A stretch of DNA of 45,252 nucleotides from an uncultured Bacteroidales bacterium (GTDB taxonomy: Bacteria > Bacteroidota > Bacteroidia > Bacteroidales > F082), in the NCBI GenBank assembly GCA_900318085.1, contig ONJF01000024.1:1-45252 (forward strand), given 5' to 3'. The notes beneath the pieces are model-generated. The model was not told where the DNA came from. It worked only from the letters and a program-made list of their open reading frames with translations, and searched no databases. Made by a program: the position numbers and the translations under genes. How positions within the stretch are numbered: position 1 is the first letter of the stretch; the number at the start of each line of letters is the position of its first letter. Of this stretch, positions 7,825 through 44,942 are shown one piece after another.

Positions 7825-8412
7825 ATGAACAAGGTCAATTTGGAAATCGTAGGCCTGACCTATAGCGAATCCTCGACAGGAGCGTATGTCTTGATCCTGG
7901 GCGACAAGAACTCGCAACGCCGTCTGCCCATCGTCATCGGCAGCGCCGAAGCCGAGAGCATCGCCGTAGGCATCGACCACCAACGCAAAGGCCGTCCCCT
8001 CACCCACGACCTATTCTTGAGGTTTGCCAAGGAATTTGGCATCGAAATCATGGAGGTGGTCATCAACCGCTTCCGCGATGGTGTCTACTATGCCATGCTG
8101 GTGTGCAAGCAGGGCGACGACCTCACGATGATCGACGCGCGTCCTTCCGACGCCATCGCCATCGCCGTGCGGGCAGAATGCGAGATCTATGCCTACGAAA
8201 CCGTCATGGACGAAGCCGGCATCATCATGGATGACATGGAAAAGGAAGAGACCGAAGAACCCGCCGAGGCCCCTATTAATATAGGTAAGGCTCAAACCAG
8301 CCTCGACATGCTCGACTTGGACACTTTGGAGGAACTGCTTCAAGAAGCCATCGACAATGAGGACTACCAGAAAGCGGCGGAGATTAGGGATGAGATCAAT
8401 AGGAGGAAATGA
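7825..8412 (+). CDS. Bifunctional nuclease (DUF151/BFN) family protein with C-terminal UVR motif
   Basis: 195 residues. The BFN/DUF151 domain covers about 1-130 (LPIVIGSAEAESIAVGI, then LTHDLFLRF and DARPSDAIAIAVR, the conserved core). An acidic linker (about 135-150) leads to a UVR/UvrBC-type helical hairpin (about 160-195, ELLQEAIDNEDYQKAAEIRD). Plant homologues of this domain have been reported to have DNase/RNase activity; the bacterial role is unclear. The stop codon is embedded in the first word of a GAATGTG array that fills the gap to the nucleoside permease. Confidence 0.88.
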   Translation: MNKVNLEIVGLTYSESSTGAYVLILGDKNSQRRLPIVIGSAEAESIAVGIDHQRKGRPLTHDLFLRFAKEFGIEIMEVVINRFRDGVYYAMLVCKQGDDLTMIDARPSDAIAIAVRAECEIYAYETVMDEAGIIMDDMEKEETEEPAEAPINIGKAQTSLDMLDLDTLEELLQEAIDNEDYQKAAEIRDEINRRK

Positions 8413-8517
8413 GGAATGTGGAATGCTGAATGAGGAATGAGGAATGTGGAATGCTGAATGAGGAATGTGGAATGTGGAATGTAGAATGTGGAATGTAGAA
8501 TGTAGAATGAGGAGTGT
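8409..8517 (+). repeat. GAATG-word array
   Basis: About 109 bases made almost wholly of GAGGAATG, TGGAATG, CTGAATG and TAGAATG units. It starts at the stop codon of the preceding gene. Related words recur at 9926-9955, 11384-11425 and 44683-44728. Confidence 0.9.
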
Positions 8518-8566
8518 GGCTCATCTGTATTAATCCGCAGCGAAGCTGCAAAATTTCGACTCGAAA

Positions 8567-8650
8567 ACATCTGTAAAATCTGTGAAATCTGTAGTTAAAT
8601 AAAACCTTGAATCTTGAATCTTTGAATATTAAATCATTAAATCGACAAAT
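8567..8650 (+). repeat. AAATCTGT / TTGAATC word array
   Basis: Three AATCTGT units followed by TTGAATC units and TTAAATCATTAAATCG-type words, ending directly at the permease ATG. The last two word types also occur just before the M13 peptidase gene (44916-44946). Confidence 0.75.
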
Positions 8651-42733: not shown

Positions 42734-42759
42734 TCGGTTTAAAAAAGGGCTTTCCCGAT

Positions 42760-44676
42760 ATGGAAAATTTCGTCGTATCAGCAAGAAAATACAGACCGAT
42801 AACCTTCGACACCGTCGTGGGTCAAGGCTCGATCACCAACACACTGAAGAATGCCATCCGCAACAACACCTTGGCGCAGGCCTTCCTGTTTTGCGGACCG
42901 CGAGGCGTGGGCAAGACCACCTGCGCCCGTATCATGGCCAAAACCATCAACTGTCTCAACCCCACCGAGAACATGGAGGCATGCAACGAATGCGAGTCGT
43001 GCCGTGCCTTCAACAACAACGCCTCGTTCAACATCTACGAACTCGACGCCGCTTCCAACAACTCGGTGGAGGACATCCGCAGTCTCGTCGACCAAGTGAG
43101 GATCCCTCCGCAAATCGGACAATACAAGGTGTATATCATCGACGAGGTCCACATGCTTTCGGCGGCCGCTTTCAACGCCTTCCTGAAGACTCTGGAAGAG
43201 CCTCCGGCGTACGCCAAGTTCATCCTCGCCACGACGGAAAAACACAAAATCATCCCGACCATCCTGTCGCGCTGCCAGATCTTCGACTTCAAGCGCATCA
43301 CGGTGGACGACATCGCCAAGCACTTGGCCTATGTCGCACAAAGCGAAGGCGTCAATGCCGAACCCGAGGCGCTGAACATCATCGCACAGAAGGCCGACGG
43401 CGCCTTGCGCGACGCGCTCTCCATCTTCGACCAAATGGTGAGTTTTTCGGGCAAGAACATCACCTACAAGGATGTCATTGACAACCTCAATGTGTTGGAT
43501 TACGACTATTATTTCCAAATTGTCGACCACATCCTGCGCGGCGAGACCAGCGACATCCTGCTCATCTTGAACGATATCATCAGCAAGGGCTTTGAGCCCC
43601 AGCACTTTGTCAGTGGCATGGGCAACCATTTGAGAAGCCTCATGGTGTGCAAAGATCCCGCTACCGTGCAACTTTTGGAGGTCAGCGAGCAACTGCGGCA
43701 ACGATATCTGGCCCAGTCGCAGGCTTGCCCCATGCCTTTCCTCATCAGGGCTTTGGAGATCAACAACAAGTGTGACATCGACTACCGTGCCGCCAACAAC
43801 AAACGGCTGCATCTGGAGATTGCCTTGTTGAAAATGTGCGCCTTGTGCAGCCAGGCCTTGAACATGCCTACGGCACAGGCGCAACCTGCACAGATGCCAC
43901 AAAACAGACCTGCGCAACCGGTAAACCCTACAGTACCTAGCGGCGTTTCGACGGGCTCAACGTCCGCTGCTACAAAGGTCCCCGAGCCCGTGGTTACCAC
44001 CAAGGTCCCTGAGCCCGCGGTTACCACCAAGGTCCATGAGCCCGCAGTTACCACCAAGGTCCATGAGCCCGCAGTTACCACCAAGGTCCCTGAGCCCGTC
44101 GAAGGGCCGGCCCCCCAACCCAACAATTCAACAACTCAACAATCAACAATTCAACAACAAACCGCTCCCGTTTCGACGAGCTCAACGTCCGCTACCACCG
44201 CAACGTCCGCCCAGCCCTCCATCCGCCCCCGCGGCACTACCAGCAGCGTCAGCATCAACAAGGCGCTACAGCAGGCTGAGCAACAAGCAGCGGAAAAGGA
44301 AGAGACCTGGGACACGCCCTTTACGCAAGAGCAACTGACCGCTTCGTGGGCTGATTTCATCAACCGTTACAAGACCGTTTCGCCCAACTTTGCGGCTGCC
44401 TTAGGCAAATACACCCCAAAGTTGATTGGCACAACAGAAATACATTTCAGCGTCGACAACCTCCTCTTCGAATACGACACAGAGGGCATCAGCGCTTTAA
44501 AACATCACCTGAAGCAGAGTCTGCACAACAACCAGTTCGCACTGAAGCCAGAGGTGATGGAACATCCTGCAGAGATTGAGGCCTACACCGACAAGGACAA
44601 GTTTGAGAAGATGGTGGAAGAACGGCCGTTTTTGAGGACTTTGCAGACGGAACTTAAGCTTGAAGGAGATTTGTAA
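42760..44676 (+). CDS. dnaX: DNA polymerase III subunit gamma/tau
   Basis: 638 residues from the ATG at 42760 (MENFVVSARKYRP). Clamp-loader ATPase: Walker A GPRGVGKTT (about 46-54), a four-Cys zinc site (Cys 65 region, then CNECESC about 76-82), Walker B/DEVH in VYIIDEVHML (about 126-135) and the SRC arginine-finger motif in ILSRCQIFDF. Lid and collar domains run to about 375. Residues about 394-486 are an unusual linker made from repeats: five 9-residue units of the TKVPEPAVT type, then Asn/Gln/Thr-rich words. The tail (about 520-638) is the short Bacteroidota tau-like domain. No slippery A run for the short gamma form was noticed. Confidence 0.93.
   Translation: MENFVVSARKYRPITFDTVVGQGSITNTLKNAIRNNTLAQAFLFCGPRGVGKTTCARIMAKTINCLNPTENMEACNECESCRAFNNNASFNIYELDAASNNSVEDIRSLVDQVRIPPQIGQYKVYIIDEVHMLSAAAFNAFLKTLEEPPAYAKFILATTEKHKIIPTILSRCQIFDFKRITVDDIAKHLAYVAQSEGVNAEPEALNIIAQKADGALRDALSIFDQMVSFSGKNITYKDVIDNLNVLDYDYYFQIVDHILRGETSDILLILNDIISKGFEPQHFVSGMGNHLRSLMVCKDPATVQLLEVSEQLRQRYLAQSQACPMPFLIRALEINNKCDIDYRAANNKRLHLEIALLKMCALCSQALNMPTAQAQPAQMPQNRPAQPVNPTVPSGVSTGSTSAATKVPEPVVTTKVPEPAVTTKVHEPAVTTKVHEPAVTTKVPEPVEGPAPQPNNSTTQQSTIQQQTAPVSTSSTSATTATSAQPSIRPRGTTSSVSINKALQQAEQQAAEKEETWDTPFTQEQLTASWADFINRYKTVSPNFAAALGKYTPKLIGTTEIHFSVDNLLFEYDTEGISALKHHLKQSLHNNQFALKPEVMEHPAEIEAYTDKDKFEKMVEERPFLRTLQTELKLEGDL
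43940..44215 (+). repeat. Repeat-built linker inside dnaX
   Basis: CGGCGTTTCGACGGGCTCAA (43940-43959), then five 27-base units at 43975-44109 of the AAGGTCCCTGAGCCCGCGGT type, the last ending GTCGAAGGGCCG; then CAACAATTCAACAACTCAAC words (44120-44158) and CCGTTTCGACGAGCTCAACG (44167-44186). All stay in frame. Confidence 0.92.
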
Positions 44677-44679
44677 TAA

Positions 44680-44942
44680 TGAGGAATGATGAATGATGAA
44701 TGATGAATGATGAATGATGAATGATGAAATGCGAAGCATTCGACGGAGTCAATGTGGAATTGCTTCTGGCCTTTGGCTTCTGGCCTCTGGCAGTTGCAGA
44801 CGATAGGCGGCCTTTCCCCAACCCGTCACTGCGGTTCCGCATTCGCGGAATGAGGAAACCGCAGTCTCCTGAGGAACAGGAGGGCTGCCAATGGCCAGTA
44901 GCCAGCAGCCAATATTTGAATCTTAAATCTTTAAATAACATA
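44680..44942 (+). repeat. GAATGAT array and nested palindromes before the M13 peptidase gene
   Basis: GAATGAT words (about 44683-44728, six in tandem), then AAATGCGAAGCATTCGACGG, a diverged copy of the AAATGCAAAGCATT block seen at 30034 and 30403; CTTCTGGCCTTTGGCTTCTG words; a nested palindrome ACTGCGGTTCCGC...AAACCGCAGT (44828-44865) with TTCCGCATTCGCGGAA inside; CTCCTGAGGAACAGGAG (44866-44882); and TTGAATC/TTAAATC words. No gene seen in this 270-base gap. Confidence 0.88.

What the first reader, a model, noticed from the sequence alone, without database searches (positions are those of the whole stretch)
8409..44942. Intergenic gaps built from site-specific short tandem words
At least twelve gaps consist largely of reiterated 7-10-base words, and the word changes from site to site while staying homogeneous within a site: GAATGTG (8409), AACTGAC (10852), AGCTATC/GGCTGAC (22273), GTTAGCACG (25409, 27059, 30382), GTCCTATTAGTC (25381, 26907, 30350), AACTCTA (30105), ATGACCACTG (37621), GGGACACGGGAC (39056, 41122), GAATGAT (44690). 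Arrays stop at start and stop codons and are absent from gene cores. Simple polymerase slippage would not reuse the same words at distant sites, and no transposase is present. This could be a class of self-copying or template-made intergenic repeat with an unknown generator.
Basis: partly seen in the sequence, partly recalled or inferred. Interest (0 to 1): 0.78.

Follow-up and report, generated by a model that had tools for sequence, protein, structure and literature searches.

The report
Seven-base intergenic repeats, known class
Gaps between genes in this uncultured bacterium hold arrays of seven-base repeat units with a steady core and a variable tail, a kind of repeat already described in other bacteria but whose origin is still unexplained.

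Summary
The arrays are real and far above chance: in the window plus 397 kb of the same genome, exact lag-7 runs number 16 in 42 kb of non-coding DNA, 4 in 400 kb of coding DNA and 0.2 per shuffle. The class is known: heptanucleotide intergenic repeats. Some listed words are something else: the 8- and 9-base words are leaders shared by genes, and those at 22273, 37621, 39056 and 41122 are hairpin stems. In the closest relative arrays are mostly kept and step by 7 bases; in other congeners a gap often holds another word, another element or nothing.

The anatomy is the interesting part. Units keep a 4-5-base core (GAATG, AACT) while the other 2-3 bases vary, more sharply than simple slippage simulations give. 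No generator was found: Y1 transposase loci hold no arrays, two array-rich but incomplete relatives lack a reverse transcriptase match, and the order of unit variants is not shared between sites (low power). Other cores are also common in other phyla, so a small shared vocabulary is not shown. Slippage plus an unidentified constraint on the core is my best reading; a dedicated generator is not excluded.

The parts
8408..8519 (+). GAATGNN array, 16 units, begins at the stop codon of the bifunctional-nuclease gene
   Evidence: period 7, score 133; about 11 units in G002, other words or none in other congeners
9928..9953 (-). GAATGNN array (CATTCNN on +) filling the gap between nucleoside symporter and thymidylate synthase; the gene's TAA stop is in register with it
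   Evidence: the two genes overlap by 4 bases in G002, G021 and G018
10797..10832 (.). dispersed palindrome upstream of the AACTGAC array
   Evidence: depth of up to 12 similar stretches in the non-coding segments of the own sample
10852..10885 (+). AACTGAAC/AACTGAC array ending 3 bases before the DHFR start codon
   Evidence: related AACTGA(A)C units in G019, G022 and G012, degenerate in G021
22276..22304 (+). left arm (TCAGCTA units) of a hairpin
   Evidence: one unit shorter in G002
22315..22342 (+). right arm (GGCTGAC units) of the same hairpin; 6 paired bases and 1 mismatch per unit
   Evidence: one unit shorter in G002; G016 and G021 have a 53-base gap here
25374..25448 (-). leader module: GTGCTAAC-type and GGACTAATA-type units upstream of a Por-tail protein gene
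26903..27095 (-). leader module interrupted by palindromes, upstream of a Por-tail protein gene
30105..30136 (+). AACTCTA array, 4.6 units
   Evidence: 18 overlapping AACTSNN x4 matches in the genome
30345..30402 (-). leader module (9- and 8-base units) upstream of a small ORF that looks like a lipoprotein by eye
   Evidence: near-identical module and gene start at C81:79602-79639
37615..37682 (.). hairpin of imperfect ATGACCACTG-like arms
   Evidence: z -4.3; a different palindrome (by eye) in G002, G016, G021
39045..39112 (.). hairpin GACACGGGAC / GTCTCGTGTC
   Evidence: GTCTCGTGTCTCG occurs 9 times in the genome
41108..41178 (.). second hairpin of the same family
   Evidence: G002 carries a TCAGCTA-type element in this gap instead
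44678..44728 (+). GAATGAT array directly after the dnaX stop codon
   Evidence: two units shorter in G002
44762..44791 (+). TTCTGGC-type array
44884..44914 (+). GCCAGTA-type array, possible partner arm of 44762-44791 (pairing not folded)
44121..44157 (+). CAACAATT-type repeat inside the dnaX coding sequence
   Evidence: expanded in G002

Best explanation
These are heptanucleotide intergenic repeat arrays of the class known as STRR or long SSR, about a quarter of them paired as hairpins in this genome. An array is inherited in its gap, grows and shrinks by whole 7-base units, most likely by replication slippage, and is now and then replaced with a different element when the gap is exchanged or a hairpin element inserts. 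A constraint that I could not identify holds the 4-5-base core of each unit while the remaining bases drift and are homogenised inside the site. Shown here: the 7-base period, the intergenic bias, persistence at the same gap in a close relative, unit-number changes, replacement, hairpin pairing, fixed core with free spacer. Inferred: slippage as the process, exchange or insertion as the way of replacement. Not known: what holds the core, and why the period is 7.
For: Period 7 dominates, also in 118 stretches fetched with a GAATGNN bait, away from the bait: 105 arrays of period 7 against at most 19 for any other period from 3 to 13, and 50 for period 14. Of 13 loci placed in close relative G002 (7 of 41, 6 of 14): 4 identical in length, 1 with a 1-base boundary difference, 4 differ in unit number (8408, 22276, 44678, C81:97366), 1 absent, 1 replaced by another element, 1 same array with a changed neighbour, 1 is the repeat inside dnaX. 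Column heterogeneity exceeds all 500 permutations in each of six sets. GAATG middle units: core mismatches 3 of 190 cells in own and 0 of 95 in G002, spacer differs from its left neighbour in 36 of 76 and 30 of 38. Hairpin partner within 90 bases: own 6 of 23, G002 4 of 20, G010 7 of 33, Acidobacteria G046 28 of 32 and G057 2 of 7, Nostoc 12 of 40, against 0 to 2.3% at random places.
Against: Uniform slippage with mutation, simulated and extracted in the same way, gives an outer-2 to core-5 variability ratio of 2.3 to 2.8, real sets 3.5 to 5.4, so slippage alone does not fit, with a looser match of extraction, uniform slippage ranged from 1.8 to 3.6, which touches the lowest real set. A microhomology-anchored version was no better (at most 3.1). 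Reuse of one word at distant sites without evident shared flanks is not explained by slippage inside a site, and block copying found no support. Against the more distant G021 only 3 of 7 own-array gaps still hold an array by the same filter. The simulations are simple, and inheritance of one variant by several units inflates column heterogeneity. In Nostoc the few GAATG units show no spacer variation (0 of 14 cells), and the AACT contrast is weaker than the GAATG one.
Confidence: 0.6

Rival explanations
1. A dedicated machine (reverse transcriptase, terminal transferase or nuclease-ligase) writes 7-base units from a template that fixes the core and leaves the spacer open.
For: Fixed core with free spacer beyond uniform slippage; GAATG and AACT arrays in genomes of several phyla; same unit vocabulary at many sites in independent order.
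Against: No RVT_1 match in array-rich G010 and G019 (assemblies incomplete); in G002 arrays mostly persist and step by 7; no candidate gene among the 29 window ORFs scanned; reversed control patterns also match heptamer arrays (11 of 18 genomes, 5 of 118), so no small set of cores is shown to be shared.
Confidence: 0.1
2. The arrays are non-autonomous mobile hairpins moved by Y1 (RAYT/TnpA-REP) transposases.
For: Whole hairpin elements differ between orthologous gaps, and the G002 h323-DUF7033 gap holds a relative of the 22273 element; 8 Y1_Tnp matches in the genome; rho 0.57 between Y1_Tnp number and array match count in 24 genomes.
Against: The 8 Y1_Tnp loci are flanked by other short repeats (by eye) and hold 0 arrays in 26,255 bases; G015 and G017 have no Y1_Tnp match and still 2 and 1 AACT matches; G004 and G007 have 4 each and 0 and 2 matches; genome size explains the correlation about as well; most arrays in this genus have no partner arm.
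Confidence: 0.12
3. The cores are binding sites of a DNA- or RNA-binding protein with a 7-base step, selected near start and stop codons.
For: Core conservation; arrays abut codons; a translational role has been suggested for TAACTGA repeats (PMC4679880, abstract).
Against: Several unrelated cores in one genome; the array type at one gap differs between congeners or is absent; GAATG units run with the genes at 8408 and against them at 9928, and AACT units lie with the gene before DHFR but against both neighbours at C81:96645.
Confidence: 0.15
4. Assembly artefact.
For: Draft assembly of 93 contigs.
Against: The same arrays sit in a separately held congener with flanks 89-98% identical, and arrays of the same kind are present in records titled complete genome (L073, L075).
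Confidence: 0.02

Closest known systems
TAACTGA direct repeats of marine Beggiatoaceae, Cyanobacteria and five Bacteroidetes (MacGregor 2015, PMC4679880; abstract, passages, sections 8 and 10 read)
   Same: Intergenic heptamer arrays, often just before a start codon; scattered over phyla; indels mostly in 7-base steps between two close strains; mixed with other heptamers in some genomes
   Different: One favoured word in the main genome studied, with single-base neighbours rarely repeated; here many words, and spacer variants mix inside an array
Nostoc trnL intron P6b heptamer stems, Class I TDNGATT and Class II NNTGAGT (PMC4476775; passages read)
   Same: Fixed bases plus N positions in each unit, hairpin stem of 7-base units, indels on both sides of the stem, repeated replacement of one class by the other at the same site
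   Different: One site inside a group I intron; here many intergenic sites
GGGNATC / GGGGA(C/T)T repeats of Xanthomonas and Nostoc (Rehm 2015, PMC4692102; passages read)
   Same: Heterogeneous (GGGANTN)n units with conserved positions, convergent pairs in Xanthomonas (70 cases among 186 patterns and 75 among 183), mainly intergenic
   Different: G-rich, quadruplex-forming; the main words here have no runs of three G, apart from the GGGAC hairpins
REP/REPIN elements with RAYT (PMC3733652, PMC3116915, PMC8266576; search listing only)
   Same: Intergenic palindromes in several copies
   Different: No array near the genome's Y1_Tnp genes; stems built of 7-base units

Membership tests
Heptanucleotide intergenic repeats (STRR / long SSR) | Head-to-tail 7-base units at many loci | tested here: met
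Heptanucleotide intergenic repeats (STRR / long SSR) | Intergenic bias | tested here: met
   16 in 42 kb against 4 in 400 kb; crude ORF calls
Heptanucleotide intergenic repeats (STRR / long SSR) | Unit number differs between close relatives at the same locus | tested here: met
   4 of 13 placed loci
TAACTGA repeats | TAACTGA as the repeated unit | tested here: not met
   The window's nearest match is AACTGAC/AACTGAAC at 10852-10885
REP/REPIN mobilised by RAYT | Repeat family flanks the cognate Y1 transposase gene | tested here: not met
   0 arrays around 8 Y1_Tnp genes
REP/REPIN mobilised by RAYT | Cleavage or binding by the transposase | not testable with these tools
   needs biochemistry
Nostoc trnL P6b type heptamer stems | Stem built of complementary 7-base units | tested here: met
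   for 22270-22345; 6 of 23 own arrays have a partner arm
Nostoc trnL P6b type heptamer stems | Location in a tRNA-Leu group I intron | tested here: not met
   the window arrays lie between protein genes; no intron search was run

The most novel reading that the evidence does not exclude
A still unknown process, at work in distant bacterial phyla, writes or maintains 7-base units with a fixed 4-5-base core and an open spacer, so that each site is assembled from its genome's vocabulary in its own order and not copied from another site. (Probability lowered from a first 0.12 after rereading the reversed-pattern controls, which show that other cores are also common and that a small shared set of cores is not established.)
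Probability: 0.1. Interest if true: 0.8.

Novelty: new member of a known kind. Interest (0 to 1): 0.42.

Why it matters
Why bacterial repeats favour a 7-base unit has no settled answer in the papers I saw; interaction length with DNA polymerase was suggested, as cited in PMC4679880 and PMC4692102. The fixed-core, free-spacer structure gives a measurable property that any model must reproduce, and this genus, with array-rich and array-poor species and orthologous gaps, is a usable test bed.

Tried and rejected
RAYT as generator: rejected as the simple explanation. Reverse transcriptase: no association seen. Block copying between sites: eight order-shuffle tests of 5 to 13 arrays each, none significant (37 to 183 of 200 shuffles reached the observed value); power is low. 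Microhomology-anchored slippage as the cause of the core: the simulation did not reproduce it. Coordinated arm length as a rule: one case only (22276-22342, both arms one unit shorter in G002); in several other hairpins the two arms carry different spacers, so I do not claim it. Word clustering: the nearest-neighbour measure was not significant in own (96 of 300) or G002 (35 of 300), although mean pair distance was low in own (0 of 300), G002 (6 of 300) and G010 (0 of 300). Reversed-pattern controls: those of AACT patterns are not independent, because TCAANNN also matches CTCAACT arrays; still, they matched 11 of 18 genomes against 9 of 18 for the pattern, and in some genomes only the control matched, so cores other than AACT are common. 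In one search the control gave 0 in own but up to 5 in others, and G004 had 3 control matches and none of the pattern; it matched 5 of 118 genomes. The own sample shows 19 of 23 arrays between co-directional genes and 1 of 23 between divergent ones, against 212 and 57 of 325 gene pairs; not tested for significance. Whether the array at 9928 was gained in own or lost in G002 is undecided. RNA folding of either strand was not run.
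Full report
What was looked at. The window is contig C77 of a 3.24 Mb draft genome in 93 contigs. Its genes (four C10 peptidases, several Por secretion tails, a TonB-dependent receptor) indicate Bacteroidota (inference from the families). I used the window, 397 kb more of the same genome, stretches of eleven congeners and of six genomes reached through public loci.

The observation. 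Tandem Repeats Finder reports the listed 7-base arrays at 8408-8519, 10852-10885, 22267-22304, 22315-22342, 30105-30136 and 44678-44728. Exact lag-7 runs of at least 12 matches occur 16 times in 42,199 non-coding bases and 4 times in 400,053 coding bases; shuffled non-coding DNA gives 0.2. Periods 3 to 6, 9 and 12 give none in non-coding DNA, period 8 two, periods 10 and 11 one each; 14, 21 and 28 give 6, 3 and 2. The tolerant version gives 21 arrays of period 7 in non-coding DNA, 5 in coding DNA, 0 in shuffles. The gene calls are crude (longest ORFs, 100 aa or more, start moved to the first ATG), and some arrays fall inside ORFs that may be spurious: 9 of 33.

What the listed words are. They are of three kinds. 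First, true heptamer arrays (8408, 9928, 10852, 30105, 44678). Second, hairpins: 22270-22345, 37615-37682, 39045-39112 and 41108-41178 fold as single-stranded DNA with z-scores of -6.4, -4.3, -4.7 and -3.9. In the first of these each 7-base unit gives six pairs and one mismatch. The single arrays 8408, 30105 and 44678 do not fold. Third, the 8- and 9-base words at 25374-25448, 26903-27095 and 30345-30402. On the minus strand they read (GTGCTAAC)n, then (GGACTAATA)n, then ATG, in part with other palindromes between, and they recur elsewhere in this genome and in G021 before reading frames whose starts look like signal or lipoprotein peptides by eye (those frames were not searched). The copy at C81:79602-79639 shares its gene start with the one at 30345-30402, so duplication of gene plus leader explains at least that reuse.

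Same gap, other species. Using flanking proteins I compared 115 orthologous gaps of 11 genomes, own included; 21 held period-7 arrays at score 9 (sequences). In the BFN-NucS gap the own genome and G002 carry GAATGNN, G019 and G021 AGTTNNN (AACT on the other strand), G023 GAATGAG, G008 a TTACTTC-type array, and G016, G018 and G013 none. In the NucS-TS gap the genes overlap by 4 bases in G002, G021 and G018. In the own genome, G008, G023, G013 and G019, and in G020, the gap starts with the stop codon TAA in register with ATTC-, ACTC- or CTTC-type units, although the repeated word differs between species. In the HHH-SNF and h323-DUF7033 gaps one kind of palindrome stands where relatives have another (by eye).

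Dynamics against the close relative G002. Of 41 array loci in my own sample 7 could be placed in the G002 stretches held at that time, all in the window; after fetching more, 6 of 14 loci of contig C81 could be placed. Placing needs matching flanks, which favours conserved gaps. Of these 13, four have identical length, one differs by a base at its boundary, four differ in unit number (about five units at 8408, one unit in each arm at 22276-22342, two units at 44678, one at C81:97366), one is absent (9928), one is replaced by another element (41122), one keeps its array beside a changed neighbour, and one is the repeat inside dnaX. In the other direction 6 of 8 G002 loci were placed, five of them the same loci and one a weak array that differs by substitutions. 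By gene-anchored gaps, 71 compared with G002 gave 4 with arrays in both, 2 in own only and 0 in G002 only; 69 compared with G021 gave 3, 4 and 1. So arrays mostly persist in the closest relative and less so in the more distant one.

Core and spacer. In units whose two neighbours both carry GAATG, the core mismatches in 3 of 190 cells in the own genome and 0 of 95 in G002, while the two spacer bases differ from the left neighbour in 36 of 76 and 30 of 38 cells. For AACT the figures are 5 of 80 core and 24 of 60 spacer cells (own), 8 of 140 and 41 of 105 (G002), 8 of 64 and 17 of 48 (G021), 8 of 236 and 58 of 177 (G010), 17 of 244 and 77 of 183 (Acidobacteria), 10 of 164 and 36 of 123 (Nostoc), a weaker contrast. 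Nostoc GAATG units show no spacer variation (0 of 14). Middle units with fewer than 3 of 5 (GAATG) or 2 of 4 (AACT) core bases were left out of these counts: 0 and 5 in own, 1 and 11 in G002, 1 and 3 in G021, 1 and 1 in Nostoc, and for AACT 4 in G010 and 1 in Acidobacteria. The measure is conditioned on intact neighbours, so I also tested column heterogeneity on arrays found by lag matching alone: observed values exceed all 500 within-array permutations in six of six sets. Because one variant can be inherited by several units, I simulated uniform slippage with mutation and dispersal and extracted arrays in the same way: the variability ratio of the two columns outside the best run of five to those five is 2.3 to 2.8, against 5.4 (own), 5.3 (G002), 4.1 (G021), 4.3 (G010), 3.9 (Acidobacteria), 3.5 (Nostoc) and 4.0 (118 bait stretches). 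With a looser match of extraction uniform slippage gave 1.8 to 3.6 and a microhomology-anchored model 1.4 to 3.1, leaving out one anchored setting in which no array passed. The models are simple, so this says that plain slippage is not enough as modelled, not that slippage is absent.

Vocabulary and spread. Word classes lie closer to one another than letter-shuffled words: G010 mean pair distance 2.61 against 2.97 with sd 0.04; own 2.97 against 3.18 with sd 0.06; the own nearest-neighbour measure was not significant. Arrays with the same word show no common flanks that I could see. If blocks were copied between sites the order of variants should be shared; in eight small tests it was not. Genus members differ strongly: AACTSNN x4 is found in 20 of 24 genomes of the genus and 1 of 16 from other families of the order; GAATGNN x4 in 13 of 24, with 195 overlapping matches in the own genome and 0 there for the reversed control, though the control gives up to 5 in other genomes; and in 9 of 118 genomes of the phylum including the own, the control in 5 of 118. 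Titles among the 80 listed rows name Bacteroidetes, Cyanobacteria, Chloroflexi, Verrucomicrobia, Acidobacteria, Planctomycetes, Nitrospira, Proteobacteria and others. Away from the bait these stretches hold 105 period-7 arrays, in 83 word classes, and at most 19 of any other period from 3 to 13, with 50 of period 14. AACTNNN x4 is found in 9 of 18 of the genomes behind such loci, and the reversed control TCAANNN x4 in 11 of 18, so many cores exist and a small shared set is not shown. In one Acidobacterium (G057) nearly every spacer differs while AACT stays (found through the AACT pattern). Spacers after GAATG use 9 of 16 dinucleotides in 66 units of the genus and all 16 in 519 units of the bait stretches.

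Looking for a generator. The genome has 8 Y1_Tnp matches. Each lies among short repeats (by eye) and none has a heptamer array within up to about 1.5 kb on each side (0 in 26,255 bases). Over 24 genomes Y1_Tnp number and array match count correlate (rho 0.57), but match count against genome size (0.57) and Y1_Tnp against size (0.56) are as strong; RVT_1 gives 0.13. The counts are overlapping pattern matches, in assemblies of 62 to 100% completeness, and relatedness was not corrected for. G010 and G019, array-rich, have no RVT_1 match, though their assemblies are 84% and 79% complete. I found no candidate.

Comparison with print. The searches were made, in open-licence papers only. TAACTGA repeats (PMC4679880) show the same placement, 7-base indels and scattered phyla. 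Nostoc trnL P6b stems (PMC4476775) show units of fixed bases and N positions, stems, and replacement of one motif by another at one site. Xanthomonas repeats (PMC4692102) are (GGGANTN)n with convergent pairs. In these searches I met no paper that sets out the fixed-core, free-spacer pattern as a general property over phyla, but these three show cases of it or close to it, so I file the finding as a new member of a known kind. That heptamers are over-represented and that 7 bases may reflect polymerase contact is taken from passages in PMC4679880 and PMC4692102 citing earlier work.

Verdict. Slippage plus an unidentified constraint on the core is my best reading (0.6).

Noticed in passing
window 43975-44098 and 44121-44157: The dnaX coding sequence holds a GGTCCCTGAGCCCG-type repeat that resembles a dispersed intergenic palindrome, and a CAACAATT-type repeat; the latter is expanded in G002.
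   Followed up: partly
L002-L009: The 8 Y1_Tnp (RAYT-like) genes are flanked by short repeats and palindromes, seen by eye, that mostly differ from gene to gene; those of L008 and L009 look alike.
   Followed up: partly
window 25374-30402: Leaders of several genes share (GTGCTAAC)n-(GGACTAATA)n-ATG modules, with other palindromes inserted between the modules.
   Followed up: partly
window 11497-22224: Four consecutive C10 family peptidase genes with Por secretion tails.
   Followed up: no
L255-L334: GAATGNN x4 arrays also occur in contigs of a viral collection; host flanks or misbinning not excluded.
   Followed up: no
G000:C28:16893-17051: A long GAATGNN array with, in its first part, a 21-base higher order (spacers AT, CG, TG in turn), suggesting duplication of several units at once.
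   Followed up: no
L228:4805-12495: In Nostoc several hairpins have GTCATTT-type left arms and AATGACT-type right arms with a recurring mismatch between the arms, seen by eye.
   Followed up: no
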